From positions 1 to 28,591 of the IMG/VR virus record IMGVR_UViG_3300017756_002223: a stretch of DNA of 28,591 nt. One strand, 5' to 3'. Shown here piece after piece: positions 3,853 through 25,046 of this stretch; positions within the stretch are counted from its first letter, which is position 1, and the number at the start of each line of letters is the position of its first letter. The translations under genes were made by a program, and so were the position numbers. The DNA is from a virus. Under the pieces are notes generated by a model. The model saw nothing but the letters and a program-made list of their open reading frames with translations. It ran no database searches and was not told the DNA's origin.

Positions 3853-3859
3853 ACTTCTT

Positions 3860-5233: not shown

Positions 5234-6156
5234 CAATATTAGTAACAGGCGGCGCAGGATTTATTGGAAGTAACTTTCTTCAGCATCTTAAGATAGTTAC
5301 TGATGAAGAAATTGTTTGTGTAGATAAACTCACTTATGCTGGAAAGAGAAACAATGTTCCAAGTAAGGCAAAATTATATGTTGCTGATATCGCTGGAGAA
5401 GATGCAATAGAAACTATTTTTGAACGCCATGATATCAAAACAGTCTTTCATTTTGCGGCAGAAAGTCATGTAGATAACTCCATCAAAGACTGTTCTGAGT
5501 TCATTAGAACTAATATTGTGGGCACTGTCAATCTACTGAACGCATCTTTGAAGCATAATGTAGAGAAGTTTATGCATATCTCTACTGATGAAGTGTATGG
5601 GTCTATTGAAAACGGGTCATTTACAGAGAAAACTAACTATGATCCTAGGAATCCATACTCTGCATCCAAGGCATCCAGTGATCATTTTGTAAGAGCATTC
5701 CATAATACCTATGGTTTGCCTACAGTAATCACAAACTGTTCCAATAACTATGGACCGAGACAGCACAAAGAAAAACTCATCCCACAAACAATTCTCAACC
5801 TTTTGAATGACAAAAAAATTCCTGTTTATGGTGATGGTAAGCAAATTAGGGACTGGCTATATGTCCAAGACCACTGTGAAGCACTGATTGAGGTATGGAA
5901 ACACGGTGTTGTAGGTGAAAAATACAATATCGGTGGTGAGTGTGAGATACAAAACATTGATTTGATTAAGAAAATCATCTCTTTGATGAGAAAAGACGAG
6001 AGTATGATAGAATATGTCAAGGATCGTCCTGGACATGACAGGAGATACTCAACTGACATTAGTAAAATTACTAAAGATTTAAATTGGAAACCAAGATTTG
6101 ATATCGATGATGGACTTACAAAAACGATTGAATGGTATGAACGCTATAGGAACTGA
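5230..6156 (+). CDS. rfbB: dTDP-glucose 4,6-dehydratase (RmlB)
   Basis: Converts dTDP-glucose to dTDP-4-dehydro-6-deoxyglucose, the common precursor of dTDP-rhamnose and other deoxysugars. 308 residues, an extended SDR: NAD-binding GGAGFIG (7-13), the diagnostic STDEVYG (118-124; T119, D120, E121 are the catalytic Thr-Asp-Glu of 4,6-dehydratases) and YSASK (Y143, K147). NNYGPRQHKEKLIP near 172-185 is also typical. It is slightly shorter than cellular RmlB (about 340-360). RmlA, which makes dTDP-glucose, is not in the window, so host dTDP-glucose is presumably used. Its end overlaps rfbC by 20 bases. Confidence 0.95.
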   Translation: MTILVTGGAGFIGSNFLQHLKIVTDEEIVCVDKLTYAGKRNNVPSKAKLYVADIAGEDAIETIFERHDIKTVFHFAAESHVDNSIKDCSEFIRTNIVGTVNLLNASLKHNVEKFMHISTDEVYGSIENGSFTEKTNYDPRNPYSASKASSDHFVRAFHNTYGLPTVITNCSNNYGPRQHKEKLIPQTILNLLNDKKIPVYGDGKQIRDWLYVQDHCEALIEVWKHGVVGEKYNIGGECEIQNIDLIKKIISLMRKDESMIEYVKDRPGHDRRYSTDISKITKDLNWKPRFDIDDGLTKTIEWYERYRN

Positions 6157-6679
6157 ACTCCAAGACGTTTACATTATTGAGAATAAATTGTTCCAGGATG
6201 GCCGTGGTTTCTTCATGGAATCCTTCAATTTGCAACAATTTCAATACATTGTTCAATATCCTGTGGAGTTTGTGCAGGATAATCACTCAAAATCCTCTCA
6301 ATCTGTGCTGAGAGGACTGCACTATCAGGTCAAACGTCCGCAAGGAAAGTTGATGCGGTGCATTTCAGGTGCAGTTTATGACGTTGTTGTTGACCTTAGA
6401 CAGTCTTCATCTACCTTTGGTAAGTGGATTGGTGTTACCTTGAACCGACCAGAGAAGCAGTTGTGGATTCCACCTGGATTCGCACATGGATTCTATGTGA
6501 TGAGTGAAACAGCAGAGTTCACGTATAAGACCACTGATTACTACGTCCCGGATGACCAAGAGACCCTTGCATGGGATGATTCTTCACTGAATATTGACTG
6601 GTTGATCACAAGAGGACCTATTTTATCTGCAAAAGACCAAGCAGGAAAGTCATTTGAGGAGTGTCACAAGTATGAATAA
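6137..6679 (+). CDS. rfbC: dTDP-4-dehydrorhamnose 3,5-epimerase (RmlC)
   Basis: Epimerises C3 and C5 of the RmlB product. 180 residues, the family length, with start at ATG 6137 inside the end of rfbB (MNAIGTELQDVYIIE, the normal N-terminus). Motifs: DGRGFFMESFN (21-31), QDNHSKSSQSVLRGLHYQ (47-64) with catalytic H62, VYDVVVDLR (80-88) and IPPGFAHGFYV (111-121). This cupin-fold enzyme together with the SDR next to it indicates a dTDP-6-deoxyhexose branch. The frame is open further upstream but the extra residues would be a shadow of rfbB. Confidence 0.95.
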   Translation: MNAIGTELQDVYIIENKLFQDGRGFFMESFNLQQFQYIVQYPVEFVQDNHSKSSQSVLRGLHYQVKRPQGKLMRCISGAVYDVVVDLRQSSSTFGKWIGVTLNRPEKQLWIPPGFAHGFYVMSETAEFTYKTTDYYVPDDQETLAWDDSSLNIDWLITRGPILSAKDQAGKSFEECHKYE

Positions 6680-7496
6680 CCTATCTGTGTTTGGTGGAAC
6701 TGGGTTTATTGGTGGTAAATTCTGTCAATTGTATCCTGATAAGGTCACTTTAGTGCCTAGAGAAGGTAGAAATCCTCCTACAAAGGATGTTCTTTACTTC
6801 ACTAGTACGACAACAAATCAAAATGTCTTCAAGGATTTGCACGTAGATATTGACACTAACTTGACCCTGTTAATGGATGTTTTATCTAATTGTAGAGACA
6901 AAGATATCACATTTAACTTTGTGAGTTCTTGTTTTGTCTATGGAAATGACGTATTGGATGCAAAAGAAACTGATTGTTGCAATCCTACAGGGTTTTATTC
7001 TATTACTAAGAGGAGTGCAGAGCAATTATTGATCTCTTATTGCAAAACTTTTGACATTAAGTATAGAATTTTTAGGATAGGAAACGTATATGGATTAGAT
7101 CCTACTATCACTCCAGGTAAAAATGTCCTTGGATATATGATTGGTTTACTAAAACATCACAAGGATATTAAACTATTTGATGATGGAGACTACAAGAAAG
7201 ACTATATGTTTGTTGAGGATATTTGTAGAGCAATCAAGTTTTTGATCAAAAAATCTGAGACAAATCAAATTTATAACGTTGCAACTGGTAGTTCAATGAC
7301 CTTTAAGGACATACTTTTGACCGCTAGTGACATGGTTTCTAGTAGAAGTGAGTTTATTCCTGTCCCATTTCCTAAAGAACAGAAGTATTTGCAGGTCAAA
7401 AACATGACATTAAACGTAGATAAACTCAGTTCTATGGGGTTTCTACTCAAGGTGTCTTTTGATGAAGGTTTAAATCAGATGTGTGAAATCTATTGA
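6672..7496 (+). CDS. NAD(P)-dependent SDR epimerase/reductase
   Basis: 274 residues from ATG 6672, overlapping rfbC by 8 bases. Extended-SDR features: GGTGFIG (8-14), FVSSCFVYGN (83-92) and the catalytic YSITK (Y109, K113), then RIGNVYGLDP and DYMFVEDICRAI. Placed just after RmlB and RmlC, it is a candidate for the 4-keto reductase that finishes the dTDP-deoxysugar, although the fold alone does not separate reductase from 4-epimerase. Codon use here is more A+T-rich than in the next gene. The TGA stop is embedded in the next promoter's -35 box. Confidence 0.8.
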   Translation: MNNLSVFGGTGFIGGKFCQLYPDKVTLVPREGRNPPTKDVLYFTSTTTNQNVFKDLHVDIDTNLTLLMDVLSNCRDKDITFNFVSSCFVYGNDVLDAKETDCCNPTGFYSITKRSAEQLLISYCKTFDIKYRIFRIGNVYGLDPTITPGKNVLGYMIGLLKHHKDIKLFDDGDYKKDYMFVEDICRAIKFLIKKSETNQIYNVATGSSMTFKDILLTASDMVSSRSEFIPVPFPKEQKYLQVKNMTLNVDKLSSMGFLLKVSFDEGLNQMCEIY

Positions 7497-7547: not shown

Positions 7548-8591
7548 ATGTCTGAGTATAAGAAGACAGCACTTGTGCTTGGTGCTGGTGGATTTATTGG
7601 TTCTCATATGGTAAAACGCCTGCGTTCTGAGGGTTATTGGGTGCGTGGTGTTGATATCAAGCACACTGAATTTTCTAAAACAGAAGCAAACGAATTTATC
7701 TCTGCAGATCTACGTGATGCAGACATGGTTCGTCGTGCAATTCGGTTTACTGGTTATCTTGGTAACTTTTATAATCAGATTGCTGAAAAGTTTGTGCAAC
7801 CTTTTGATGAGATCTATCAGTTCGCTGCTGATATGGGTGGTGCAGGGTTTGTTTTCACTGGAGAAAATGATGCAGACATCTTGCACAACTCAGTGCAGAT
7901 TAACTTGAACGTGCTTGAGGAGCAAAGAAAACTTAATGAGTCCTCAAAGGGAAATAAAACTAAGATTTTCTATTCTGGGTCTGCTTGCATGTACCCGGAG
8001 CACAATCAACTAGACCCTGACAACCCTGACTGCCGTGAAGAATCAGCATACCCCGCCAACCCAGACTCAGAATACGGATGGGAAAAACTCTTCTCCGAGC
8101 GTCTCTTCTTGGCTTACAACCGCAATTATGGCATTCCTGTTCGGATTGCTCGTTATCACAACATCTTCGGACCCGAAGGAACCTATGAGGGAGGAAGAGA
8201 GAAAGCACCAGCTGCAATCTGCCGCAAGGTCGCTTTCCTCCCAGAGTCGGGTGGAGCTATCGAAGTGTGGGGAGATGGCTTACAAACTCGTTCCTTCCTG
8301 TTCGTTGATGAATGCATCGAAGCGACTAGACGACTGATGGATAGTGACTTCACTGGTCCTGTAAACATTGGTTCAGAAGAGATGGTAAGTATCAACGACC
8401 TGGTTGATATTGTTGCTGAGGTTGCTGGTAAAGAAGTTAAAAAGATTCATATTGATGGACCTTTGGGTGTCCGTGGTCGTAACTCTAACAATGACTTGAT
8501 TCGTGAGAAACTTAATTGGGATTACTCTCAATCACTTTCTGTAGGAATAGAAAAAACATACAGTTGGATTCATTCTCAACTTTTCAGTTGA
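7548..8591 (+). CDS. GDP-mannose 3,5-epimerase homologue
   Basis: Likely interconverts GDP-D-mannose with GDP-L-galactose or GDP-L-gulose, known best from plant ascorbate synthesis. 347 residues. SDR motif GAGGFIG (12-18); ADMGGAGF (94-101); FYSGSACMYPE (141-151) with C147; EYGWEKL (Y176, K180); YEGGREKAPAA (213-223) with K219; WGDGLQTRSF (241-250); VNIGSEEMVS; GVRGRNSNNDLI (308-318). C147, Y176, K180 and K219 correspond, with a constant +2 offset, to the catalytic C145, Y174, K178 and K217 of the Arabidopsis enzyme. The GGREKAPAA and ADMGG motifs separate it from GDP-fucose synthase. It has its own promoter. Bases 7981-8280 are much richer in G+C than the rest of the gene. Confidence 0.88.
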   Translation: MSEYKKTALVLGAGGFIGSHMVKRLRSEGYWVRGVDIKHTEFSKTEANEFISADLRDADMVRRAIRFTGYLGNFYNQIAEKFVQPFDEIYQFAADMGGAGFVFTGENDADILHNSVQINLNVLEEQRKLNESSKGNKTKIFYSGSACMYPEHNQLDPDNPDCREESAYPANPDSEYGWEKLFSERLFLAYNRNYGIPVRIARYHNIFGPEGTYEGGREKAPAAICRKVAFLPESGGAIEVWGDGLQTRSFLFVDECIEATRRLMDSDFTGPVNIGSEEMVSINDLVDIVAEVAGKEVKKIHIDGPLGVRGRNSNNDLIREKLNWDYSQSLSVGIEKTYSWIHSQLFS

Positions 8592-12034: not shown

Positions 12035-12771
12035 AAATTGCACTTTGTTTATCCGGGCAACCTAGAGTTGTTGAGGTTGGATTTCAAAAACTAAATGAAA
12101 CTATCTTACAGCACAATGATGTTGACGTGTTCATTCACACCTGGTTTGACCCAGAGAATCTGAGCACTCAGTCTGTCATTCCTGGTAGAGAGGGACATCA
12201 ACTATCACCAAATGCTTTGTATGTTCTACAGGAGTTATACAAACCCAAGATGATGATGGTTGAGAAACCGAAGACTTGGGGTAGAACATTTGAGTATCCT
12301 CAGAAAACTTTTGAGAAAGCGCACACCTGGGCACTTGAGGTGCCAACTGGACTTGATGATGCAAAGGGATATCTAAACAACACCACTCATTGCATGTGGT
12401 ATAGTTTGATGATGTCAAACATTCTCAAAGAGAGGTATTCCTCTGATGTTGGTGTTCAATATGATTGGGTTATCCGTAATCGTATTGATTATGGTCCTCA
12501 TCTTCACCTAACATTTGAAGAAGAACCCGAGGAAGACACTGTATATTACCAACACAACCCAGACCACCCTGATGGTATGTTGGGAGATTGGTTCGCCATG
12601 GGTTCTAACAGCTCTATGAACGTGTATTCTAGTGTGTTCTCAAGTCTGTATCCTCTTGTCAAACAATCTAATGAGGATGTAGGATACTGGTGTAATGAGT
12701 TGCTTTTGAAGTATCACTTGATGAACAATCACATCAAACCAGAACCAATTGATTTACAAGTTCATCACTGA
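12031..12771 (+). CDS. Putative glycosyltransferase-like protein
   Basis: 246 residues. It starts MKIALCLSGQPRVVEVG with VDVFIHTWF at 31-39, and later YDWVIRNRIDYGP (144-156) and LGDWFAMGSN. This CxSGQPR / DVFIHTW / RxRxD pattern is found in uncharacterised proteins of viral and bacterial polysaccharide clusters that are thought to be GT-A-type transferases. No canonical DxD is seen; NRID could play that role. No signal peptide or membrane span. It lies among sugar-nucleotide genes and not with the main transferase block after 16927. Family-level function is inferred. Confidence 0.6.
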   Translation: MKIALCLSGQPRVVEVGFQKLNETILQHNDVDVFIHTWFDPENLSTQSVIPGREGHQLSPNALYVLQELYKPKMMMVEKPKTWGRTFEYPQKTFEKAHTWALEVPTGLDDAKGYLNNTTHCMWYSLMMSNILKERYSSDVGVQYDWVIRNRIDYGPHLHLTFEEEPEEDTVYYQHNPDHPDGMLGDWFAMGSNSSMNVYSSVFSSLYPLVKQSNEDVGYWCNELLLKYHLMNNHIKPEPIDLQVHH

Positions 12772-13778
12772 TGAAGACAGTATTTGCTAAAGCACCTTTG
12801 AGATTAGCAATGTCTGGTGGAGGCACAGACTTGCAACCATACTGGAGCAAGTATGGTGGTGTAGTTTTGAATGGAACTATAGATCAATATGCATACTGTA
12901 AGATAGAACCCCATGATGAATGGGTTTTCAAAAGTGTTGACCTTGGATTAGAGGATAGTATTTCTCTTAAAGATTACCATGATGGTCCTCTAAAACTTTT
13001 AATCAATACTTATCAATACTTGACTAAGAGTTTGCGTAGGTCTCCTGTTAAGATTACGACCTATGTCGAGGCACCCCCTGGAAGTGGTTTGGGAAGTTCT
13101 AGTGCCCTTGTAGTTGCGCTGGTATCTGCTATCACTGAATATTATGGTCTTGCAAAGGGAGAGTATGATATTGCTGAAGATGCCATTATGATTGAGAGGG
13201 AGATATGTAGTCTCCCCGGCGGAAAACAAGACCAGTTTGCTGCTGCGTTTGGTGGATTTAACTTTATGGAGTTCTTGCCTGATGGTAGAACCATTGTTAA
13301 TCCACTGAGATTGAATTATAAAACCCAAAACATGGTGGAATTAAATACGGTTCTCTACTATGTTGGCAAACCACGTAAAGATGCAAACGTTATTGTAAAT
13401 ACCTCAAAGAATCTGGTGGATAATAGTAAAGTCATCCAGGCAACTCATAAAATTAAAGAAACTTGCATTGAATATAAGAATGCATTACTCACCGGAGACT
13501 TTGATATGATATCTCAGTTGATGAATACTTATTGGAAGATGAAGTTAGAGACCAATGAAAACGTTGCCTCTGATGAACTAATCGATGTTTATAATTTTGC
13601 TTTGCAAAATGGTGCTACTGGTGCTAAGATATCAGGTGCTGGAGGTGGCGGACATATGATTCTCTTTACTGACTTTGAAAAGAGACATCAACTGATCACT
13701 GCCCTTAAGAAAAGAAAACTTGGAAGAGTTGTTCCTTTTAAGTTTGTTAAACATGGTGTTGATGTTTGGAGATCTTAA
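12771..13778 (+). CDS. HddA-like GHMP sugar kinase
   Basis: 335 residues, the normal length for D-glycero-alpha-D-manno-heptose 7-phosphate kinase (HddA) and related GHMP kinases. Motif 1 KAPLRLAMSGGGTDL (7-21) is characteristic of this subgroup; motif 2 APPGSGLGSSSA (101-112) is the phosphate loop; motif 3 GAKISGAGGGGHMILF is near the C-terminus. HddA phosphorylates C1 of heptose 7-phosphate; fucokinase-like relatives share these motifs. A small HAD phosphatase, a cupin and an HddC-like guanylyltransferase follow directly, which supports a GDP-heptose-type pathway. GmhA, the first step, is not in the window. Confidence 0.85.
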   Translation: MKTVFAKAPLRLAMSGGGTDLQPYWSKYGGVVLNGTIDQYAYCKIEPHDEWVFKSVDLGLEDSISLKDYHDGPLKLLINTYQYLTKSLRRSPVKITTYVEAPPGSGLGSSSALVVALVSAITEYYGLAKGEYDIAEDAIMIEREICSLPGGKQDQFAAAFGGFNFMEFLPDGRTIVNPLRLNYKTQNMVELNTVLYYVGKPRKDANVIVNTSKNLVDNSKVIQATHKIKETCIEYKNALLTGDFDMISQLMNTYWKMKLETNENVASDELIDVYNFALQNGATGAKISGAGGGGHMILFTDFEKRHQLITALKKRKLGRVVPFKFVKHGVDVWRS

Positions 13779-14107
13779 TGAATTACGTGATTGATATTGA
13801 TGATACTATCTGTATCCCTGGTCCTACAGAGGAGACAAAGTATACGGGTGCTACACCAATCAATGATAGGATCTCTAAAATAAACAATCTATATACTCAG
13901 GGGAATCGTATCATCTATCACACTGCTAGGGGTATGGGTAAGCACAAGAACTCTTCCAAACTTGCACATGAAGAGCACTACAATTTCACTCTTAAACAAT
14001 TAACATCTTGGGGATGTATGTTTAATGAATTACATATGGGAAAACCATCTGGTGATTACTATATTGACGACAAGGGAGTAAACACGAATGACTTCTTCGG
14101 AAATTAA
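13778..14107 (+). CDS. Small HAD-like phosphatase of capsule/LPS clusters
   Basis: 109 residues from ATG 13778 (TAATG with the previous stop; GGAG seven bases upstream). HAD motif I is YVIDIDDTIC (3-12) with D6 and D8; motif II is IIYHTARG (45-52); motifs III/IV are MGKPSGDYYIDDKG (87-100) with K89, D97 and D98. No cap domain is present. Proteins of this short type occur beside heptose or capsule nucleotidyltransferases. Between an HddA-like kinase and an HddC-like transferase, it is the best candidate for the phosphatase step that GmhB fills elsewhere. It overlaps the next gene by 20 bases. Confidence 0.78.
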   Translation: MNYVIDIDDTICIPGPTEETKYTGATPINDRISKINNLYTQGNRIIYHTARGMGKHKNSSKLAHEEHYNFTLKQLTSWGCMFNELHMGKPSGDYYIDDKGVNTNDFFGN

Positions 14108-14444
14108 AATAGTTCCAAAAGGATGGGGACACGAAAAGTGGATTGTCAACACTGAAGAGTATTGCGGTAAACTTCTTTTCTTTAATGAAGGCAAGGGATG
14201 CTCCTGGCACTATCACAAAGAGAAAGATGAAACTTTCTATCTTCAGAGTGGTCAGATGTATTTGACTTATGGGGACTCTGATAATATTAAAGATGCAAAG
14301 ACAATAATTCTAAGAGAGGGAGATAAGTTTCATATTTACCGTGGGCTTAGGCATCAAATGAAAGCAATCACTGATGCTGAATTGTTTGAATTTTCTACAC
14401 AACATTTTGAAGATGATAGTTACAGAGTTATCAAAGGGGATTAA
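14088..14444 (+). CDS. Cupin protein, sugar isomerase/epimerase-like
   Basis: 118 residues. WHYHKEKDETFYLQSGQM (40-57) carries H41, H43 and an acidic ligand near 47-48; the second motif is GLRHQMKAITDAELFEFSTQH (86-106) with H89. The pattern resembles D-lyxose isomerase-like and mannose-6-phosphate isomerase-like single cupins (metal bound by three His and one Glu). It begins inside the preceding HAD gene and ends inside the next gene, so three consecutive reading frames overlap here. A role in supplying the ketose or aldose precursor for the HddA/HddC-type route is possible but not shown. Confidence 0.75.
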   Translation: MTSSEIKIVPKGWGHEKWIVNTEEYCGKLLFFNEGKGCSWHYHKEKDETFYLQSGQMYLTYGDSDNIKDAKTIILREGDKFHIYRGLRHQMKAITDAELFEFSTQHFEDDSYRVIKGD

Positions 14445-15054
14445 ATTATACTTATTGGTAGGTGGCAGAGGAACCAGGTTGCTATCCATTACAAATGGTG
14501 CACCAAAACCAATAGTAGATGTAAATGGTAAACCATTTATTCAAAGAGTATTAGATAACTTGTCTGGGTTTGATATTACTTTAGTTTGTTCTGACCTAAA
14601 CTATGAATACTTCAAAGACTTAGGTGTTGATGTATTCAATGAAGGAGAACCATCTGGGACTGCTGGATTTCTACGTAAAGTAGATTTACCAGAGTCCTTT
14701 TGTGTTATGAATGGTGATACTTTTTTCTCTGGTGATATAAACCTTGACTGTGATGGGTCAACCATATTCGTTGCAGAAGAAGATGTAACCCATGATGTTG
14801 GTTATATTCATGGTAAGGATGGAAAAGTTCAATACTTTGTAGAAAAAGACTCTAGAGCAACTGGGAAAAGACTTGTTAGTCTTGGTATCTACAAATTGTT
14901 TAAGAAAGATTTAGATATTCCAAATATATTGCCAATTAGTATGGAATATGATATACTGCCAAGGATGGAACTATCTTACAAAATAATTAAAACAGATAAG
15001 TTTGACATCGGAACACCCGAAAGACTTGAAAAATTTAGGGAGTGGGTATGTTAA
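14413..15054 (+). CDS. HddC-like sugar-1-phosphate nucleotidyltransferase
   Basis: 213 residues from ATG 14413, which gives a 32-base overlap with the cupin gene; the usual N-terminus of the family would begin near 14440 (KLYLLVGGRG), where only an ATT codon exists, so the start is uncertain. Signature GGRGTRL (17-23), PKPIVDVNGKPF (31-42) and VMNGDTFF (98-105; D102 binds metal). Length and motif layout fit D-glycero-alpha-D-manno-heptose 1-phosphate guanylyltransferase or similar short transferases. Directly after HddA-like kinase, HAD phosphatase and cupin, GDP-heptose is the most coherent product. Glucose or mannose activation cannot be excluded. Confidence 0.8.
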   Translation: MIVTELSKGIKLYLLVGGRGTRLLSITNGAPKPIVDVNGKPFIQRVLDNLSGFDITLVCSDLNYEYFKDLGVDVFNEGEPSGTAGFLRKVDLPESFCVMNGDTFFSGDINLDCDGSTIFVAEEDVTHDVGYIHGKDGKVQYFVEKDSRATGKRLVSLGIYKLFKKDLDIPNILPISMEYDILPRMELSYKIIKTDKFDIGTPERLEKFREWVC

Positions 15055-15863
15055 AAATTATTGGGGCAACCGGAAACGTTGGTAAAAGACTTTTGGAGAA
15101 GTCTTTAAGTGTTTGGCACGATGATGTTGAGGCAATTGCAACACGGTTAGATAAGGATGAACTTGATTATAATTTCAAGTCTCTTTCACACAATGATACG
15201 ATTGCATTTTGTGCTGCTATCTCAGAACCAACAGTATGTGCTAACAACCCTGAGTTAGCACGAAAGGTAAACGTAGAAAAGACGATTGAATTTATTGAGA
15301 GATCAATTCAATACGGGGCAAAGGTTATCTTTATGTCAAGTGATGCTGTCTATGGTGACATAGATAAACCATTTGATGAACAGTGGGCGACGAATCCTAT
15401 TGGCGCATACGGTATGATGAAAGCAGAGGTAGAAAGATATTTTATCGGGCATCACAATGTAAAGATACTGAGATCCTCATACAACTTTTTTAGAGAAGAT
15501 CGATTTACTTCTTACCTAGAGAAGTGTGCATTATCTGGGGAGACAGCAGAGGTATTCTCTCCATTCAAGCGGTCAGTCATTCACCTGGATGATACCGTGG
15601 ATGCTATTCTTAGTCTCTCTAGGAACTGGGAGGGACCACAGATTATCAATTGCGGTGGACCTGAAACCCTTTGTAGAGCAGAGTTTGCTAAGATTCTAAA
15701 GGAAGAAGTTTTCCCTGAACTTGAAATAAAAATTGTAAGACCACCAGAAAAATTTTATATGGATAGACCTTGTGAGGTTTCGATGATGTCTATTTCACTC
15801 AAAGAAGTTTTAGGGAAACTCCAAAAGACTTTGAGAGAAGCAATTCGCATGGAGTTTGAATGA
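15048..15863 (+). CDS. RmlD-like SDR (NDP-4-keto-sugar reductase candidate)
   Basis: 271 residues from ATG 15048, overlapping the previous stop by 7 bases. NAD(P) motif GATGNVG (6-12) at the very N-terminus, SSDAVYGD (97-104) and YGMMK (Y121, K125) make a complete SDR active site; SVIHLDDTVDAIL follows. The short LKIIGATG start, the length and the SDAVYG...PxxAYGxxK layout resemble dTDP-4-dehydrorhamnose reductase (RmlD). It may reduce the RmlB/RmlC product or the Gmd product encoded next door. It ends in an ATGA overlap with Gmd. Confidence 0.75.
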   Translation: MLKIIGATGNVGKRLLEKSLSVWHDDVEAIATRLDKDELDYNFKSLSHNDTIAFCAAISEPTVCANNPELARKVNVEKTIEFIERSIQYGAKVIFMSSDAVYGDIDKPFDEQWATNPIGAYGMMKAEVERYFIGHHNVKILRSSYNFFREDRFTSYLEKCALSGETAEVFSPFKRSVIHLDDTVDAILSLSRNWEGPQIINCGGPETLCRAEFAKILKEEVFPELEIKIVRPPEKFYMDRPCEVSMMSISLKEVLGKLQKTLREAIRMEFE

Positions 15864-16882
15864 AAACAATTCTCATAACTGGCATCACAGGACAGGTAGG
15901 ATCTCAATTAGCAGACTACATCCTTGATAATACTAATTATAATGTGGTTGGTATGATGCGATGGCAAGAACCACTTGATAACATCTACCACCTTACTGAT
16001 CGTATCAATAAAAAAGATCGCATCTCTCTTTTCTATGCAGACCTGAATGATGGTATGTCTGTAAAGAGGATGATTGATGAGGTCAGACCTGATTATATCT
16101 CTCACCTTGCCGCACAGTCATACCCAAAGACATCATTTGATATTCCCATCGAAACTCTGCAGACAAACATCATTGGCACTGCAAATCTACTTGAAGCTGT
16201 CCGTCAGACGCCCAAGTATTACCCTGTAGTACACATCTGTTCATCTAGTGAGGTATATGGTAAAACGCCTACTGGAGTAGTCCTTAATGAGGATACGCCA
16301 ATGCACGGAGCAAGTCCTTATAGTATCAGTAAGATAGGTGCAGATCACTTAGGAAAGTTCTATGGTGAGGCATATGGAATGAAAACATTTATGACTCGCA
16401 TGGGAACACACACTGGACCCAGAAGGAGTGATGTTTTCTTTGAGAGCACGGTAGCAAAACAGATTGCGTTGATTGAAGCAGGATACCAAGAACCTGTTGT
16501 ATATGTTGGCAACCTGTCTAGCACTAGAACATTCCAAGATGCTAGAGATGCAGTAAGAGCATACTTCATGTTACTAGAGGCAAGTGCCAAAGGTAGGATT
16601 GAACCAGGAGAGCACTTTAATATTGCCGGTGATGAGGCATATAATTTAACAGAGGTAGTTGATTTATTACTGAGTTTTAGTACACGACTAGATATAGAGG
16701 TCAAAACTGATGTGAATCGATTGAGACCCATTGATGCAGACTACCAGATGTTTGATAACGCAAAAATCAAAAGCGTCATCGATTGGAAACCTGAGATTCC
16801 TACCGGACAAATGTTCCATGATCTTTTAGATCATTGGAGACATCAGATTTTTAAGATGGGTAAAATCCCATTGAATCGTTGA
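15860..16882 (+). CDS. gmd: GDP-mannose 4,6-dehydratase
   Basis: Makes GDP-4-dehydro-6-deoxy-D-mannose, the precursor of GDP-L-fucose, GDP-D-rhamnose and GDP-perosamine. 340 residues, close to the family norm. GITGQVG (8-14); HLAAQSY (82-88); CSSSEVYG (127-134) with the Ser-Glu pair of the dehydratases; SPYSISK (Y154, K158); THTGPRR (183-189) and GNLSSTRTFQDARDAVRA, both typical of Gmd. The dimer-type NHTGPRR motif reads THTGPRR here. A GT11 fucosyltransferase downstream (22879) points to GDP-fucose, though no clear GDP-fucose synthase is seen. ManC is absent, so host GDP-mannose is presumably used. Confidence 0.9.
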   Translation: MKTILITGITGQVGSQLADYILDNTNYNVVGMMRWQEPLDNIYHLTDRINKKDRISLFYADLNDGMSVKRMIDEVRPDYISHLAAQSYPKTSFDIPIETLQTNIIGTANLLEAVRQTPKYYPVVHICSSSEVYGKTPTGVVLNEDTPMHGASPYSISKIGADHLGKFYGEAYGMKTFMTRMGTHTGPRRSDVFFESTVAKQIALIEAGYQEPVVYVGNLSSTRTFQDARDAVRAYFMLLEASAKGRIEPGEHFNIAGDEAYNLTEVVDLLLSFSTRLDIEVKTDVNRLRPIDADYQMFDNAKIKSVIDWKPEIPTGQMFHDLLDHWRHQIFKMGKIPLNR

Positions 16883-19408: not shown

Positions 19409-20385
19409 TGAGACTTGCACTTGTTGGACCTGGCATTATGCCCATTCCCCCTGATGGATGGGGTGCTGTTGAAAGTTTGATTTGGGATTATGCCCTAGAA
19501 CTAGATGAACTAGGACATGAAGGGACGATTGTTAATACTCCCAACTATGATGAGATTATCAACTTTTTGAAAGAAGAGCAATATGACTTTGCTCACGTTC
19601 ACTATGATGTCTTTCATCCAATTATGGATAGGATTGCTTCTGAAACTGACATTCCTAAATTAGCATTCAGTAGTCACTATCCTTACATCGATCAACCACA
19701 TATGCATCGCCGTGATGGGTATGATCGTATCTTTGATTGGATTATCAATAATAAAAAATACTATGTATTCTGCATCTCAAAGAAAGACTATGAGACTTTT
19801 AAGAATGCTGGAGCAGATGAGAGTACACTTCTCCTCTCTGAGAATGGTGCCAACCACAAGAGATTTACCTATAGTAGTGAAGCACTAAAACCTGACCGCT
19901 CCCTGTATCTGGGACAGATCTATCACCGTAAGAAGCAGTGGTTGTATCAAGGTATTGAGTCTATCGACTACGTAGGCAAGGACACTGGTGCTACACCATT
20001 CGATCAGTCTAAGAACTACCTTGGTGAATGGAGTGATGACTATAAGCGTGAGCACTTCACTGACTTTGCAAGTCTTGTTCTGCTGTCTGACGGAGAGAAC
20101 GGCACACCTCTGGTTGTAAAAGAGGCAATCATCAATGGACTTGGTGTAGTCATCTCTAAGTATGCTGCACACGATTTGCCTGAGGGTCTGCCTTTTGTTA
20201 CTGTGATCCCTGATGACAAACTTGAGGACATTCCATATGTCGAGGAGAAGATTAAGGAGAACCGTGAGATCTCTATCGGCATGAGAGATGAGATCAGACA
20301 ATTTGGTATTGATAACTTCTCTTGGGAGAGTCTTGTTAAACTCTATACTCAGAATGTTGAGAAGTTAGAACCCAATGCGAATTAG
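19408..20385 (+). CDS. GT4-like glycosyltransferase (GT-B fold)
   Basis: 325 residues from ATG 19408 overlapping the previous TGA. Starts MRLALVGPGIMPIPPDGWGA (G-rich loop and WGAVES, which hold the acceptor). C-terminal half: LYLGQIYHRKKQ, FDQSKNYLGEW, LVLLSDGENGTPLVVKEAIINGLGVVIS, the EX7E-like donor motif of GT4 with K-E-A for E-A. It is a clear paralogue of the N-terminal 310 residues of the next gene, sharing GWGAVESLIWDY, FDQSKNYLGEW and VTVIPxDK; a tandem duplication is the obvious explanation. Retaining mechanism expected from the fold. Confidence 0.82.
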   Translation: MRLALVGPGIMPIPPDGWGAVESLIWDYALELDELGHEGTIVNTPNYDEIINFLKEEQYDFAHVHYDVFHPIMDRIASETDIPKLAFSSHYPYIDQPHMHRRDGYDRIFDWIINNKKYYVFCISKKDYETFKNAGADESTLLLSENGANHKRFTYSSEALKPDRSLYLGQIYHRKKQWLYQGIESIDYVGKDTGATPFDQSKNYLGEWSDDYKREHFTDFASLVLLSDGENGTPLVVKEAIINGLGVVISKYAAHDLPEGLPFVTVIPDDKLEDIPYVEEKIKENREISIGMRDEIRQFGIDNFSWESLVKLYTQNVEKLEPNAN

Positions 20386-22042
20386 TATTATTGGACCAGA
20401 CACCCCAATCCCACCAAAGGGATGGGGTGCTGTTGAGTCTTTAATCTGGGACTACAAGATAATATTAGAGAAGTTAGGACACGAGGTTCAGATCATAAAC
20501 ATCGGAGACCCGATGAAGATTCTGGGCATGATTGACGAGTTCAAACCCGACTTCGTACATATCAACTATGATGACTGGGTTCCTCTATATCCTTACATTA
20601 GATATCCCTGTGCCATAACAACTCACTTTGCTTATATTGAAAGACCTGAACTGATGGGTCCATATAAGCAAAGGGTTTTTGATGTTTTCAGACAAATTAA
20701 ACCAACAGTCTTTGGACTGTCTGATGATATCAATAAAGTTTATGAAACTGATTGTGGGATTCCTTCTGATAGGTTATACTTGAATCCTAATGGAGTTATG
20801 TCAGACAACTTTAGAGTGACTGATACTCCTAAGTTTGCTGACAGATCTATCTTCCTCGCAAAGGTGGATTATAGAAAGAGGCAGTGCTTCTTTCAGTCTA
20901 TTGATAGTCTGTGGTATGCGGGTAATATCGTAGACCATAGATTCGATCAGTCTAAGAATTATCTTGGTGAGTGGGAGAAAGATTATCTCTATGATAATCT
21001 CACTGACTATGGAAACCTTGTGCTTCTATCTGATGGTGAGGCACATTCGCTGGTCATCATGGAAGCATTTGCTGCTGGTCTTGGTGTTGTTGTTAGTCAG
21101 TGGGCAACAGCAAACCTTGACTTGAGTAAGAAGTTCATCACTGTAATCCCTGAAGATAAAGTTGATGACCTTGAGTATGTTGAGAGAGCAATCACTGAGA
21201 ACAGAGAATACTCTGTGAATAATAGAGATGAAATCCTAGAATACTCTAAGCAGTTTGACTGGACTAATGTAATTCAAAATTATTTCATACCAAATATTGA
21301 GAAGATGATTGAGAATAAAAAGAATAAGGTTGCTATCTGCTTCATAGGAACAGGGAAGTATTTGAACTATCTTCCTAATTACTATGAGCACATTGAAGAG
21401 CACTTTCTACCAGAGTCTGAAAAGACATTCTTAGTCTTCACAGACGGAGAACTGGAGGAAATGCCTGACAATGTGATTCGTTATCATCAGGATCATTTAG
21501 ACTGGCCATTCATCACTCTTAAACGATTTGAGATTCTCAATCAAGCAAGACAAGAGATTATGAAGAACGATTGGTTTGTTTTCATTGATGCTGATGCTCT
21601 GGTGACTAGTGACATTACTGAAGAAGAATTCTTTGACCCTAGCAAACCATTCTTTGGGGTGCATCACCCGTGTCACTTCCTTGGTATGCAACCACATGGT
21701 AAGTTTCCTGGTGCTTTTGAGACGAACCCTAAGTGTCGTGCATCTATTACAGAGGATGCTGATGTCTCAACCTACTGGCAAGGATGTCTGTGGGGTGGTA
21801 AAGTGCCCTATGTGTTTGAACTGATTGATGAACTTCAGAATAGAACCAATGATGATCTAAAAGATGATATAATAGCAGTGTGGCACGATGAAAGTCATCT
21901 AAATAAATTTTTTATAGAGAATAAAGAGAGAGTACATACCTTACCTTCGTCATATGCATACCCAGAAGACTTTGCTGACGCATGTGATTTTGAAGCGAAG
22001 ATAGTACATCTATCAAAAAATAATTCTAATTATCATATCTAA
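20375..22042 (+). CDS. Two-domain glycosyltransferase: GT4-like plus GT6-like
   Basis: 555 residues, roughly two domains. Residues 1-312 are GT4-like: MRISIIGPDTPIPPKGWGAV, FDQSKNYLGEW (190-200) and LVIMEAFAAGLGVVVS (226-241). Residues 318-555 start afresh with KVAICFIGTGKYL and carry the GT6 (ABO/alpha-1,3-galactosyltransferase) features: FIDADALV (403-410, DxD = D405/D407), HHPCHF (430-435), YWQGCLWGG (467-475), and the hallmark AVWHDESHLN (501-510), then KIVHLSKNN. GT6 transfers Gal or GalNAc with retention, usually to a fucosylated Gal. The start overlaps the previous gene by 11 bases. A GT11 fucosyltransferase follows two genes later. Confidence 0.88.
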   Translation: MRISIIGPDTPIPPKGWGAVESLIWDYKIILEKLGHEVQIINIGDPMKILGMIDEFKPDFVHINYDDWVPLYPYIRYPCAITTHFAYIERPELMGPYKQRVFDVFRQIKPTVFGLSDDINKVYETDCGIPSDRLYLNPNGVMSDNFRVTDTPKFADRSIFLAKVDYRKRQCFFQSIDSLWYAGNIVDHRFDQSKNYLGEWEKDYLYDNLTDYGNLVLLSDGEAHSLVIMEAFAAGLGVVVSQWATANLDLSKKFITVIPEDKVDDLEYVERAITENREYSVNNRDEILEYSKQFDWTNVIQNYFIPNIEKMIENKKNKVAICFIGTGKYLNYLPNYYEHIEEHFLPESEKTFLVFTDGELEEMPDNVIRYHQDHLDWPFITLKRFEILNQARQEIMKNDWFVFIDADALVTSDITEEEFFDPSKPFFGVHHPCHFLGMQPHGKFPGAFETNPKCRASITEDADVSTYWQGCLWGGKVPYVFELIDELQNRTNDDLKDDIIAVWHDESHLNKFFIENKERVHTLPSSYAYPEDFADACDFEAKIVHLSKNNSNYHI

Positions 22043-22043
22043 A

Positions 22044-22892
22044 ATGAAAGTCACAGTATTGGGATCTTCGGGTCAAATTGGTGCATACCTAACAGAATAT
22101 CTCCGTGGTAAAGGTCACGAGGTAATAGAGTTTGATGTTGCTAGACACCACGGTGAAGACCTCACACAAATTCCTAATCACAACTTAGATCGTGCTATTA
22201 AGAATGCAGACTTTGTGTTCTTCCTGGCATTTGATGTTGGTGGGTCTAGGTATCTGAAGAAGTATCAGCATACATTTAAATTCATTGATAACAACACCCG
22301 TATGATGGCGCAGACCTTTGGTTTGCTTGAGAAATATCATAAGCGTTTTGTCTTTGCATCGTCTCAAATGAGTAACATGAGTTACTCTCCATATGGTGTG
22401 ATGAAGCGTGTTGGTGAAATGTATACCACTACACTTAAGGGTCTCACTGTTAAGTTTTGGAATGTGTATGGTATTGAAAAAGACCTGGAAAAGGCACACG
22501 TCATTACTGACTTCATCCGCAAAGGGTTTGAAGAAGGTGACTTTGAGATGATGACTGATGGCACTGAGGAACGTCAGTTCCTCTATGCTGAAGACTGCTG
22601 TGAGGCACTGGAAACAGTGATGGAAAACTTCACTGACTTTAAACCAGAAGACCCTCTACACATCACTTCATTTCATTCAACCACCATTAAAGATGTTGCA
22701 TCAATTATCATGGGGCAATTCCGCTTGATTGATAAAGAAGTTAACATCAAACCTGGACTTGCAAAAGATAGTGTTCAATTAGATAAGAGAAACGAAGCAG
22801 ATAGTTACATAACTGGATGGTGGTTACCCAAAACCAACATGCAGAATGGAATTGCAAAAGTGTTTGAGGCTATGAAGAATGATTGGGTTTAA
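22044..22892 (+). CDS. SDR NDP-sugar epimerase/dehydratase
   Basis: 282 residues. N-terminal VLGSSGQIGAYL (5-16) is the NAD(P) loop; FVFASSQMSN (103-111) and YSPYGVMKRVGE (114-125; Y117, K121) form the active site; FWNVYGIE and ERQFLYAEDCCEAL are typical of extended SDRs. It is the sixth SDR in the cluster and the only non-transferase in this operon, so it probably supplies a donor to an adjacent transferase, for example by 4-epimerisation. Specificity cannot be read. There is one spacer base after the GT6 stop, and it overlaps the next gene by 14 bases. Confidence 0.78.
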   Translation: MKVTVLGSSGQIGAYLTEYLRGKGHEVIEFDVARHHGEDLTQIPNHNLDRAIKNADFVFFLAFDVGGSRYLKKYQHTFKFIDNNTRMMAQTFGLLEKYHKRFVFASSQMSNMSYSPYGVMKRVGEMYTTTLKGLTVKFWNVYGIEKDLEKAHVITDFIRKGFEEGDFEMMTDGTEERQFLYAEDCCEALETVMENFTDFKPEDPLHITSFHSTTIKDVASIIMGQFRLIDKEVNIKPGLAKDSVQLDKRNEADSYITGWWLPKTNMQNGIAKVFEAMKNDWV

Positions 22893-23730
22893 TCACATTG
22901 GAGCCATTGGAAGATTTGGTAACCAGATGTTCCAGTATGCAGCACTGAAAGGTATTGCCGCTAATCGTGGTTTTGATTACACAATCCCACCAGAGAATTC
23001 CCAAATTCAAATTGATAACTATGGATTGCTAGAAGCATTTGAGTTGTCTACCAATAAGAATGTTGGTTGGAAAGAAAGCAGTGACACGGTGCAGGAGAGG
23101 CACTTTCATTTTGATGAGGAAATCTTTAATAAATGCCCTGACGATGTAAACATCCATGGATTCTTTCAAACAGAAAAGTATTTCAAGCATATTGAAGATG
23201 ATATCCGTAAGGACTTTACTTTCAAAAGTGAGTGGTTAGAACCTTGCCAAAATATGATTGAACAATTAGACACTGATCCAATCCTCCTTCATGTTCGTCG
23301 TGGTGACCCTGGACTTGCTGACAAAAGAGGGTTTAAGTGGGCATATGTGAACCTTGCTCATCAGCATCCTGTACAACCCCTAGAATATTACAAGAAGGCA
23401 CTTGCAGAGTTTGATGACGAACAACCTGTGATTGTGTTCTCTGACTCAATTGACTGGGTGAAAGAGCAACCATTCTTCCAAGGTGATAGATTTATGTTTT
23501 CTGAACCAGAGGACAAGCACTCTGACGGAGCACTAGTTCCTTACCTTGATATGTGCTTGATGTCTCTCTGTAGTCATGCTATCATTGCTAATAGTTCTAT
23601 GTCATGGTGGGGTGCCTGGTTGATTAAAAATCCAAACAAAAAAGTCATAGCACCAAGCATGTGGTTTGGTTCTGACTATGCTGATAAAGATACCTCTGAT
23701 TTATATTGCGAAGGATGGAAAGTAATTTAA
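22879..23730 (+). CDS. GT11 alpha-1,2-fucosyltransferase
   Basis: 283 residues, the normal family length. GRFGNQMFQYAALKGIA (11-27) is the GT11 N-terminal motif; NIHGFFQTEKYF (91-102) matches the G-x-x-Q-x-x-K-Y-F block; LLHVRRGD (136-143) is the GDP-fucose-binding HxRRGD; VFSDSIDWVK and ANSSMSWWGAWL are motifs II and III. It transfers L-fucose from GDP-fucose in alpha-1,2 linkage, commonly to galactose, which is the acceptor type GT6 enzymes then extend. Gmd at 15860 supplies part of the donor route. The start lies inside the previous gene. Confidence 0.92.
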   Translation: MIGFNHIGAIGRFGNQMFQYAALKGIAANRGFDYTIPPENSQIQIDNYGLLEAFELSTNKNVGWKESSDTVQERHFHFDEEIFNKCPDDVNIHGFFQTEKYFKHIEDDIRKDFTFKSEWLEPCQNMIEQLDTDPILLHVRRGDPGLADKRGFKWAYVNLAHQHPVQPLEYYKKALAEFDDEQPVIVFSDSIDWVKEQPFFQGDRFMFSEPEDKHSDGALVPYLDMCLMSLCSHAIIANSSMSWWGAWLIKNPNKKVIAPSMWFGSDYADKDTSDLYCEGWKVI

Positions 23731-24530
23731 TGGATAAGAATAAGTCCGCATACAAGTTACAGGGTATCGGACCAATATGTTGCATCAACCTGGATGGTCA
23801 ACCAGAGAGATGGGAGTATATGCAAACTCAATTTAAGTATTGGGAGATTACTGATAAGGTCACTCGTGTTTCTGCATATGATGGTAGGGATGATGATCTT
23901 AGTGACATCATCACAGGCAAATACCCTGACAATATGAACTCAGGTGAGATTGGATGTGTAACCAGTCATCTCAAGGCAATGAAGCATTGGTTAGAGACAT
24001 CTGATAGTCCTTATGCAATTATGATGGAGGACGACTGTAGCCTGGACCTTGTTAGGTTTTGGAATTTCCGTTGGACTGATTTGATTGCACACCTTCCTTA
24101 TGACTGGGATGTGTTTCAGATTGCAATCATCTGCACTGGAGACATTCATGTCAAACTGCACAAGAGATTTGTGAATAATTTCTCTACTGCTTGCTACTTG
24201 ATTACCAGACACCATGCAGAAAAACTATTGAGGTTGCACACTCGCGGAGAAAAGTATAAGTTAGACCAGGGTGTCAAACCTCGTGCTGTTGCTGATGATT
24301 TGATTTACAACTCTGGTAACACATTCTCTATGCCACTCTTGGTATATAAGACTGAGTTGGGATCGTCTATTCACCCAGAGCACGTCGGTGCTTTTCACCA
24401 AGGGAATTTCAATGCACTTACAAACTTCTGGGAACAGCAGGGTGCCAGTATTGACATTGCAGAGTATATGAACTATGATCCTTACCTCGGTCGCGTTACT
24501 GAACCGTCCGGGCAACCGAACCAAGGTTGA
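23730..24530 (+). CDS. GT25-family glycosyltransferase (LOS/LPS type)
   Basis: 266 residues with start at ATG 23730 (TAATG with the previous stop); in-frame ATGs at 23706 and 23715 would extend it into the fucosyltransferase gene. Motifs of GT25: CCINLDGQPERWEYM (17-31), GEIGCVTSHLKAMKHWL (72-88), YAIMMEDDCSL (95-105) with E100-D102, STACYLITRHHAEKLL and AVADDLIY. Family members add galactose or glucose to lipooligosaccharide. Last gene of the cluster; its TGA is part of the -35 box of the next promoter. Confidence 0.88.
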   Translation: MDKNKSAYKLQGIGPICCINLDGQPERWEYMQTQFKYWEITDKVTRVSAYDGRDDDLSDIITGKYPDNMNSGEIGCVTSHLKAMKHWLETSDSPYAIMMEDDCSLDLVRFWNFRWTDLIAHLPYDWDVFQIAIICTGDIHVKLHKRFVNNFSTACYLITRHHAEKLLRLHTRGEKYKLDQGVKPRAVADDLIYNSGNTFSMPLLVYKTELGSSIHPEHVGAFHQGNFNALTNFWEQQGASIDIAEYMNYDPYLGRVTEPSGQPNQG

Positions 24531-24562: not shown

Positions 24563-24651
24563 ATTGGCACACAGTAGAAATACTTACTACAGTGTGCCAG
24601 TTTACAAACAGACCCATGTCGAGGGTCTTTCCATCCGTGGGACACTCCACG
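24563..24651 (+). ncRNA. Structured 5' leader with three consecutive hairpins
   Basis: Hairpin 1 spans 24563-24601: ten pairs built on TGGCACAC/GTGTGCCA, one A-A mismatch, then GTAG/CTAC (24574-24577, 24587-24590) around a 9-base loop. Hairpin 2 is AGACCC/GGGTCT (24610-24615, 24623-24628) with a 7-base loop. Hairpin 3 is CGTGG/CCACG (24636-24640, 24647-24651) with a 6-base loop. It starts about three bases after the late-type promoter element and ends 23 bases before the ATG at 24675. The frame is also open here but encodes no recognisable peptide. Confidence 0.65.
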
Positions 24652-24674
24652 AGATATACTTAAAGGTAACAAAA

Positions 24675-25046
24675 ATGTTTAAATCTGTATTCGCAGCCTC
24701 CGCTGCTCTATTCGCTTCTGCTGGCGCTGCCCTTGCAGGTCCCTACGTCAACGTCGAAACCAATGCAGGTTGGACCGGCGGCGATTACACCGGAGCTACT
24801 ACAGATCTCCACGTTGGATACGAAGGTCCCGTTGGTGAATCTGCTGCATACTACGTCCAACTAGGTGCTTCCGTTGTCTCCCCTGATGCCGGAGAATCTG
24901 ACACTGTTCCTTCTGGTAAGGCAGGTCTTTCCGTTGCTGCTACCGACGCAGTGGGTGTCTATGGTGAAATCTCCTTCATCGGTTCTGGTGATGATGACGT
25001 TGACCGTGGTTATGGTGGTAAACTGGGTGTGAAGTATAGCTTCTGA
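24675..25046 (+). CDS. Secreted beta-barrel-like (porin-like) protein
   Basis: 123 residues from ATG 24675 (AAAGGT about 8 bases upstream). The first 21 residues are a classic signal peptide (FKSVFAASAALFASAGAALA, cut before G22). The mature part is an alternating polar/hydrophobic pattern of short strands with Gly/Asp turns (VNVETNAGWTGGDYTGATTD, AYYVQLGASVV, GVYGEISFIGSGDDD) and ends in GVKYSF; a C-terminal Phe is the usual outer-membrane barrel signal. About eight strands would fit. Codon use is unusually C-ending and G+C-rich compared with neighbours. It is expressed from its own composite promoter. Outer membrane placement in the cyanobacterial host is inferred. Confidence 0.75.
   Translation: MFKSVFAASAALFASAGAALAGPYVNVETNAGWTGGDYTGATTDLHVGYEGPVGESAAYYVQLGASVVSPDAGESDTVPSGKAGLSVAATDAVGVYGEISFIGSGDDDVDRGYGGKLGVKYSF

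What the first reader, a model, noticed from the sequence alone, without database searches (positions are those of the whole stretch)
22879..23730. ABO/H-antigen-like logic: GT11 fucosyltransferase beside GT6
GT11 makes Fuc-alpha-1,2-Gal (H-type) and GT6 adds Gal or GalNAc to that structure in blood-group synthesis. Having both within 3 kb, with Gmd in the same cluster, suggests that the phage could build a blood-group-like cap. This is inference from family specificities; phage enzymes may differ.
Basis: partly seen in the sequence, partly recalled or inferred. Interest (0 to 1): 0.75.

Follow-up and report, generated by a model that had tools for sequence, protein, structure and literature searches.

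The report
Phage two-step sugar-capping enzyme pair
A virus of aquatic cyanobacteria carries the same two kinds of sugar-adding enzyme that build human A/B blood-group antigens, and related viruses keep the pair together, but here the first sugar is more likely L-galactose than fucose.

Summary
The GT11 gene (22879-23730) and a GT6 domain (21323-22042, C-terminal half of a fused GT4-GT6 protein) are real and about 840 bp apart. The pairing exceeds chance: among dereplicated virus loci with full flanks, GT6 has a GT11 within 3 kb in 30 of 30, against 13 of 25 for GT25 anchors; GT11 has GT6 in only 6 of 40. That asymmetry fits GT6 acting on GT11's product, as in ABO synthesis. The GT6 model overlays BoGT6a bound to 2'-fucosyllactose (Z 31.8) and keeps its main catalytic residues.

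The donor half of the reading fails. The "Gmd" (15860) is a GDP-heptose 4,6-dehydratase (549 bits, against 144 for the best GMD). The window shows no fucose synthase but has a GDP-mannose 3,5-epimerase (GME, product GDP-L-galactose). Of 38 hand-picked GT11-bearing records, 18 carry only GME, 15 only fucose synthase, 3 both, 2 neither (p=9e-6). GT11 clades follow donor type.

Best reading: a two-step cap with exchangeable donor modules, L-galactose-type here. No product is shown; host-made GDP-fucose remains a rival. Single genes were already reported in other cyanophages. New variant of a known kind.

The parts
22879..23730 (+). GT11 (alpha-1,2-L-fucosyltransferase family) with motif HVRRGD at residues 138-143
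   Evidence: PF01531 E 6.7e-24; model pLDDT 90.1, nearest solved folds NodZ, POFUT1, FUT8, AtFUT1
21323..22042 (+). GT6 domain, C-terminal half of ORF 20375-22042; DXD = D89-A-D91, E190, H115 in domain numbering
   Evidence: PF03414; model pLDDT 91.5, 4ayj Z 31.8; D89, D91, H115, E190 invariant in 13 phage GT6 and in 23
20375..21322 (+). GT4-like glycosyltransferase half fused in front of GT6
   Evidence: phrog_33732 E 9e-146 over aa 1-315; GT4-like stretch directly before GT6 in 12 of the 76 GT6 loci that carry a GT11
22044..22892 (+). Extended SDR ('SDR22') between GT6 and GT11, overlapping the GT11 start by 14 bp; probable nucleotide-sugar enzyme, often beside GT11 or GME
   Evidence: Pfam Epimerase; 41 of 85 phage SDR22 rows adjacent to GT11, 25 adjacent to GME, rows not dereplicated and the window itself among them
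7548..8591 (+). GDP-mannose 3,5-epimerase (GME) by homology, source of GDP-L-galactose
   Evidence: 2c59 281.6 bits against at most 65 bits for GDP-fucose synthase
15860..16882 (+).
   Evidence: 7us5 549.1 bits against 143.8 bits for the best GMD entry; close relatives have HddA within 3 kb in 8 of 8 full-flank loci and Gmd or Fcl in 0 of 8
23706..24530 (+). GT25-family glycosyltransferase downstream of GT11; used as a control anchor
   Evidence: PF01755 E 2e-10

Best explanation
A phage-encoded two-step capping module. GT11 transfers an L-fucose-type sugar from a GDP donor to a (probably galactose-like) acceptor, and the GT6 domain then adds an alpha-linked UDP-sugar (Gal/GalNAc-like) to that product, the same order as in ABO synthesis. 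In this phage the GDP donor is most likely GDP-L-galactose made by the phage's own GDP-mannose 3,5-epimerase, perhaps altered by the SDR between GT6 and GT11; other phages use Gmd plus fucose synthase (GDP-L-fucose) in the same slot. Shown: family membership, conserved gene coupling and its asymmetry, donor-module exclusion, fold and catalytic residues. Inferred: acceptor, linkage, donor sugars, order of action, and that the glycan sits on host surface or virion.
For: Coupling: 30 of 30 dereplicated full-flank GT6 loci have GT11 within 3 kb (25 adjacent), against 13 of 25 (2 adjacent) for GT25 anchors; p 1.2e-5 and 1.4e-8; reverse direction 6 of 40. Whole records: all 20 GT6+ records among 44 are GT11+, though several were picked by GT11. 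Two gene orders, GT11|GT6 and GT4+GT6|SDR|GT11, with GT11 from separate clades. Donor: GME in the window; GME|GT11|GT6 contiguous in 17 of 80 loci and in Bellamy, S-CAM9, S-8S56, S-PRM1, SynMITS9220M01. Of 38 records hand-picked by GT11/GT6: 18 GME only, 15 Fcl only, 3 both, 2 neither; p 8.6e-6, 8.6e-5 after removing near relatives by hand. 0 of 6 GT11-less cyanophages have either. Donor type clusters on the GT11 tree: 7 changes against 35 in shuffles. Some L-fucosyltransferases accept GDP-L-Gal (PMC8787198, passages). GT6: 4ayj Z 31.8, rmsd 1.4 A, 223 aligned; R68, H115, W187-E190, K232 equal BoGT6a in the sequence alignment.
Against: No product chemistry. 88 of 151 host-family genomes match the fucose-synthase profile, so host GDP-fucose could feed GT11. 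GT11 lies within 3 kb in only 11 of 39 GME-anchored loci (13 of 21 at 7.5 kb); in the window GME and GT11 are 14 kb apart. Three records carry both donor systems (S-SCSM1, G008, G171) and two neither (B23; G170, a 95-kb fragment). P-SSM2 has SDR22 next to fucose synthase, so SDR22 is not GME-specific. In cellular genomes GME can sit beside true Gmd and Fcl (L459, L490, L509), and GT11 is the next gene in only 4 of 64. Scans kept the best 80 loci, biased to window relatives; outside cyanophages coupling is looser or unknown: in a 634-kb uncultured phage GT6 and GT11 are 11 kb apart, and two short faecal phage fragments with GT6 were not among the 60 of 103 GT11 records listed. The G/T change at GT11 residue 142 follows donor type (G in 67 of 85 GME-linked, 8 of 41 Fcl-linked) but has only 3 supported independent pairs; human FUT2 also has G there (recalled).
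Confidence: 0.5

Rival explanations
1. One reading: GT11 makes Fuc-alpha-1,2-Gal and GT6 extends it, with GDP-L-fucose supplied by the host rather than by a phage Gmd.
For: 88 of 151 host-family genomes match the fucose-synthase profile. Some relatives have fucose synthase directly before GT11|GT6 (L049, L073, L098) or a few genes upstream (ACG-2014f, DSL-LC02). BoGT6a acts on 2'-fucosyllactose (PMC3961637, passages).
Against: The window's 'Gmd' is a heptose enzyme; no Fcl-like score in the window nor in the complete record of SynMITS9220M01; of 20 GT11-bearing records without Fcl, 18 have GME.
Confidence: 0.27
2. No functional coupling: GT11 and GT6 are neighbours only because cyanophage polysaccharide islands shuffle glycosyltransferases.
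For: GT11 is common in these islands: 13 of 25 GT25 anchors have one within 3 kb. In one distant 634-kb phage GT6 and GT11 are 11 kb apart.
Against: 30 of 30 against 13 of 25 and 25 of 30 adjacent against 2 of 25; asymmetry of the dependence (6 of 40 in reverse); the pair persists in different orders and GT11 clades.
Confidence: 0.12
3. GT11 here transfers a 6-deoxy-heptose from the GDP-heptose pathway encoded at 12771-16882.
For: The pathway is in the same cluster; 7 of 8 full-flank relatives of the dehydratase have GT11 within 7.5 kb.
Against: The dehydratase is absent near most GT11: 0 of 40 full-flank GT11 anchors at 3 kb and 0 of 17 at 7.5 kb; it is adjacent to GT11 in 0 of 8 of its own full-flank loci.
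Confidence: 0.08

Closest known systems
Vertebrate FUT1/FUT2 + ABO (GT11 + GT6) blood-group synthesis
   Same: Same two CAZy families, proposed same order; GT6 with metal-binding DXD and the WHDE catalytic stretch
   Different: Phage GT6 is fused to a GT4-like domain, with Q-G-C where ABO has L/M-G-G/A (ABO letters for B type, otherwise recalled); donor for GT11 likely GDP-L-Gal; acceptor unknown
Bacteroides ovatus BoGT6a (PDB 4ayj)
   Same: Nearest solved structure: Z 31.8, 31% identity; same main catalytic residues
   Different: BoGT6a has NXN and is metal-independent (PMC3961637, passages); the phage enzymes have DXD
GT6 of Prochlorococcus phage P-SSM2 and other cyanophages
   Same: Phage GT6 with DXD and a GT11 with two genes in between; GT6 in 'two cyanophages' was noted in print in 2014 (PMC3961637, passages)
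   Different: P-SSM2 GT6 is 31% identical to the window's, has A-G-G instead of Q-G-C, and its phage carries a fucose synthase, not GME
Cyanophage S-SCSM1 cell-wall gene set
   Same: Carries GME, an alpha-1,2-fucosyltransferase and other GTs; the authors already state that GME makes GDP-L-galactose (PMC9602691, passages)
   Different: No GT6 match; has both donor systems; no link between GME and GT11 is drawn in the passages seen

Membership tests
CAZy GT11 (alpha-1,2-fucosyltransferase) | Pfam PF01531 over the full length | tested here: met
   E 6.7e-24, 85.1 bits, cut-off 23.9
CAZy GT11 (alpha-1,2-fucosyltransferase) | HxRRxD donor motif and GDP-fucose-transferase GT-B fold | tested here: met
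   H138, R140, R141, D143 invariant in 19 sequences (a few more distant GT11-like rows lack it); NodZ Z 14.8, rmsd 3.2 A, 220 aligned, then POFUT1, FUT8 and AtFUT1
CAZy GT11 (alpha-1,2-fucosyltransferase) | Transfers L-Fuc from GDP-Fuc to O2 of Gal | not testable with these tools
   needs enzyme assay
CAZy GT6 | PF03414, GT-A fold of BoGT6a/ABO | tested here: met
   E 7.1e-20; 4ayj Z 31.8, ABO entries Z about 27
CAZy GT6 | Metal-binding DXD and catalytic Glu | tested here: met
   D89, D91, E190 invariant in 13 and in 23 phage GT6
ABO-type A/B antigen synthase | Acts on Fuc-alpha-1,2-Gal acceptor with UDP-Gal or UDP-GalNAc | not testable with these tools
   only gene coupling and overlay on acceptor-bound 4ayj
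GDP-mannose 4,6-dehydratase (Gmd) | Closest to characterised GMDs; over NCBI's equivalog cut-off | tested here: not met
   549 bits to heptose dehydratase 7us5 against at most 144 to GMDs; TIGR01472 172.5 of 415 bits; 126 bits to E. coli Gmd against 464-500 for four true phage Gmds
GDP-mannose 3,5-epimerase (GME), ORF 7548-8591 | Closest to solved GMEs over the whole length | tested here: met
   2c59 281.6 bits, aa 10-345
GDP-mannose 3,5-epimerase (GME), ORF 7548-8591 | Catalytic Cys, Lys and YxxxK (roles recalled) | tested here: met
   C147, K219, Y176/K180 invariant in 10 phage GMEs; role assignment is recalled

The most novel reading that the evidence does not exclude
Cyanophages build an L-galactose version of the A/B-type blood-group motif (sugar-alpha-1,3-[L-Gal-alpha-1,2]-Gal), a glycan that no described organism is known (to me) to make, by swapping the fucose donor module for GDP-mannose 3,5-epimerase in front of GT11 and GT6.
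Probability: 0.38. Interest if true: 0.78.

Novelty: new variant of a known kind. Interest (0 to 1): 0.55.

Why it matters
It turns a family-name coincidence into a testable pathway: a virus-borne glycan module with a swappable first-sugar donor and a dependent second transferase. In 151 picocyanobacterial-family genomes drawn, GME matched 1 (the centre genome itself), GT6 1 and GT11 13, so the phage would bring a glycan that is foreign to most such hosts. That bears on why cyanomyoviruses carry large polysaccharide islands (surface masking, exclusion of other phages, or virion decoration), a question still open as far as I know.

Tried and rejected
Sequence search of GT11 against the PDB gave nothing real (BamD, E 0.43); structure comparison was used instead. 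NCBIfam gave no match for GT11; the GT6 domain scored below its subfamily cut-off (171.8 of 250); HddA was the best hit of 12771 but below cut-off, and HddC only the second-best hit of 14389.

Residue 142 of GT11 (G or T) as a donor-specificity marker was tried: strong raw association but only 3 independent pairs on supported branches, so not used as evidence.

GME beside GT11 in cellular genomes: GT11 is the next gene in 4 of 64 and in the locus in 5 of 80 by my phage-built profile; too few to lean on. The Pfam count of 6 of 64 for PF16363 is not a count of true Gmds, because that model also matches other SDRs. GT6 sugar specificity from Q153-G154-C155 was not inferred: no characterised enzyme with that triplet is known to me.

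Dropped rows and selection: the tree used 126 of 390 GT11 rows (85% dereplication to 220; 86 with no donor gene in the locus and 8 'both' or 'none' left out). Donor class for most IMG/VR loci is read from at most +-8 kb. The 38 records of the donor table were hand-picked: 22 named phages taken from the GT11 and GT6 hit lists with near copies left out (I had already seen the GME hit list; S-CAM7, with GT11, was not included), then 8 long IMG/VR records, then 8 more added on re-checking because one of them, L083, had been missed. Left out of the table: W23 (found by GME), G009-G015 (found by GME or Fcl) and the six controls. In one search Fcl and the other genes of the added eight were scored on 20-kb pieces.

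Literature: in searches no listed title, abstract start or passage that I saw links GT11 with GT6 or GME with GT11 in phages; passages were opened in four papers only, and only open-licence PMC papers are held.

Full report
WHAT IS THERE. The window is a 28,591-base IMG/VR virus record; its nearest named relative by DNA is Synechococcus phage SynMITS9220M01 (26% of the query covered at 80.5% identity). ORF 22879-23730 is a complete GT11 protein (Pfam PF01531, E 6.7e-24). ORF 20375-22042 is a fusion of a GT4-like half (phrog_33732) and a GT6 half (PF03414, aa 308-536). Between them lies an extended SDR (22044-22892) that overlaps the GT11 start by 14 bases; a GT25 gene follows GT11. Phage records with matches: 103 for GT11, 71 for the GT6 domain, mostly cyanophages.

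THE 'GMD' IS NOT A GMD. Against E. coli Gmd it scores 126 bits, while four true phage Gmds score 464-500. It follows a HddA-like kinase at 12771 (best NCBIfam hit, 292 bits, below the 600-bit cut-off) and a weakly HddC-like nucleotidyltransferase (54.8 of 300 bits, second-best hit). In full-flank relatives it has HddA within 3 kb in 8 of 8 and Gmd or Fcl in 0 of 8. It therefore belongs to a GDP-6-deoxyheptose-type pathway and does not support fucose supply.

THE LIKELY DONOR ENZYME. ORF 7548-8591 matches GDP-mannose 3,5-epimerase at 281.6 bits against at most 65 bits for GDP-fucose synthase. [quoted passage not shown] PMC8787198, passages). No ORF of the window scores like a fucose synthase: the best is the GME itself, 64 bits to E. 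coli Fcl against 309-353 for four phage Fcl. SynMITS9220M01 has GME and no Fcl match in its 190 kb. L-galactose is fucose with a hydroxyl on carbon 6 (established chemistry), and several L-fucosyltransferases, an Arabidopsis alpha-1,2 enzyme among them, transfer it (PMC8787198, passages and reference titles).

IS THE PAIRING REAL? I scanned virus contigs for GT6, GT25, GT11, GME, the heptose dehydratase and Fcl (the best 80 loci each, 13 for the heptose enzyme; GT25 and the heptose enzyme with one protein as query, the others with alignments) and annotated them with profiles of my own. After 95% dereplication and with 3 kb on both sides: GT6 has GT11 in 30 of 30 (25 adjacent), GT25 has GT11 in 13 of 25 (2 adjacent), GT6 has GT25 in 14 of 30, GT11 has GT6 in 6 of 40. 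Fisher tests: 1.2e-5 for presence, 1.4e-8 for adjacency. Of all 80 GT6 loci, 76 have a GT11, always on the same strand; in the other four GT6 lies within about 0.8 kb of a contig end. In 44 whole records all 20 with GT6 have GT11, though several were picked by GT11; of the 24 without GT6, 16 have GT11. The dependence is one-sided, as expected if GT6 needs GT11's product but not the reverse. Limits: the sample is of cyanophage type. In a 634-kb uncultured phage with a distant GT6 the two genes are 11 kb apart, and two short faecal phage fragments with GT6 could not be judged.

REPEATED ASSEMBLY. Two main layouts exist: GT11 then GT6, and the window's GT4+GT6, SDR, GT11 (9 of 80 loci). On a GT11 tree of 126 rows the window's GT11 sits in a starred group of 46 (43 GME-linked) apart from the main GT11|GT6 operon rows, and GT6 adjacency needs at least 7 changes on the best tree. 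The pair was therefore probably brought together more than once, or kept through replacement of its GT11.

EXCHANGEABLE DONOR MODULE. Contiguous GME|GT11|GT6 occurs in 17 of 80 GT6 loci and Fcl|GT11|GT6 in 3, plus 2 with a gap before GT6. In 30 hand-picked GT11-bearing records (22 named phages, 8 IMG/VR records): GME only 16, Fcl only 11, both 2 (S-SCSM1, G008), neither 1 (B23); Fisher 1.5e-5. On re-checking I added 8 further IMG/VR records: Fcl only 4, GME only 2, both 1 (G171), neither 1 (G170, a 95-kb fragment). Together: 18, 15, 3 and 2 of 38; Fisher 8.6e-6, and 8.6e-5 after near relatives are removed by hand. Six GT11-less cyanophages have neither (0 of 6). Donor type is clustered on the GT11 tree: 7 changes against a mean of 35 in shuffles, 0 of 500 as low; near-copies contribute to this. 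A G or T at residue 142, inside the HxRRxD motif, follows donor type (G in 67 of 85 GME-linked, 8 of 41 Fcl-linked), but the independent-pairs test has only 3 supported pairs and cannot reach significance.

THE SDR IN BETWEEN. Relatives of 22044-22892 are adjacent to GT11 in 41 of 85 phage rows, to GME in 25, to either in 55 (rows not dereplicated). GME-SDR-GT11 runs with gaps of 9 bases or less in, for example, L193, L196 and L299. Two Prochlorococcus genome contigs carry GME directly followed by it (L444, L445). But P-SSM2 has it right behind fucose synthase, and of 37 whole records only 6 have it, 5 with GME and 1 with Fcl. The simplest reading is an enzyme that further alters a GDP-L-hexose; its reaction is unknown. 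By profile its closest solved relatives are SDR epimerases, GME and, weaker, GDP-fucose synthase.

STRUCTURE. The GT6 model (pLDDT 91.5) overlays BoGT6a bound to 2'-fucosyllactose (4ayj) at Z 31.8, rmsd 1.4 A, 223 residues, and human ABO entries at Z about 27. In the sequence alignment, BoGT6a residues R73, H122, W189, H190, D191, E192, K231 correspond to R68, H115, W187, H188, D189, E190, K232; its N95/N97 are D89/D91 here, so metal dependence is expected. G157 of BoGT6a is C155 here. The GT11 model (pLDDT 90.1) is nearest to NodZ (Z 14.8), POFUT1, FUT8 and Arabidopsis FUT1, all GDP-fucose transferases.

HOST. In 151 genomes drawn from the family of a Prochlorococcus genome: GME 1 (the centre genome itself, which was reached through a GME hit, so otherwise 0 of 150), Fcl 88, GT6 1, GT11 13. 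At least three other Prochlorococcus genome contigs carry GME (L444, L445, L447), so it is rare rather than absent in hosts. The phage's GT6 and GME are thus foreign to most hosts searched; GDP-fucose often is not, which keeps the host-fucose rival alive.

KNOWN OR NEW. GT6 in two cyanophages was mentioned in 2014 (PMC3961637, passages), and GME plus a fucosyltransferase in S-SCSM1 in 2022 (PMC9602691, passages). In the searches made nothing that I saw connects them. E. coli O86 and other bacteria with GT11 plus GT6 making B-like antigens are recalled, not tested. I file this as a new variant of a known kind.

Noticed in passing
window 12771-16882: Probable GDP-6-deoxyheptose pathway in a phage: HddA-like kinase, a short ORF that I read as HAD-like, cupin, weakly HddC-like nucleotidyltransferase, SDR, GDP-heptose 4,6-dehydratase. 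13 virus loci with a close dehydratase were found with a single-protein query.
   Followed up: partly
window 20375-22042: Fused GT4+GT6 protein; the ORF at 19405-20385 matches the same PHROG as its GT4 half (phrog_33732). A GT4-like stretch directly before GT6 occurs in 12 of 76 GT6 loci with GT11.
   Followed up: partly
L012 6007-6699 and L013 5998-6690: P-SSM2-type GT6 has A-G-G where the other 11 of 13 aligned phage GT6 have Q-G-C at the position aligned with the ABO specificity residues, which might mean different donor sugars.
   Followed up: no
L487 (Lokiarchaeota MAG) 4986-7033, L491, L458, L459: GME directly beside a GT11-family gene also in archaeal and bacterial contigs.
   Followed up: partly
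L444 and L445: Prochlorococcus genome contigs with GME followed by the same SDR as in the window; host origin or phage contamination was not settled.
   Followed up: no
window 4739-7496: Cytidylyltransferase-like, dTDP-glucose 4,6-dehydratase (426 bits, over cut-off) and dTDP-4-dehydrorhamnose 3,5-epimerase: a dTDP-sugar block beside GME.
   Followed up: no
window 24564-25046: Short ORF with a signal-like start directly after the GT25 gene (own reading, not tested); the relative DSL-LC02 has an annotated outer membrane protein at this place.
   Followed up: no
window 3859-3953: tRNA-Ile with anticodon TAT of 95 bases; a tRNA-Ile of the same length is annotated in SynMITS9220M01.
   Followed up: no
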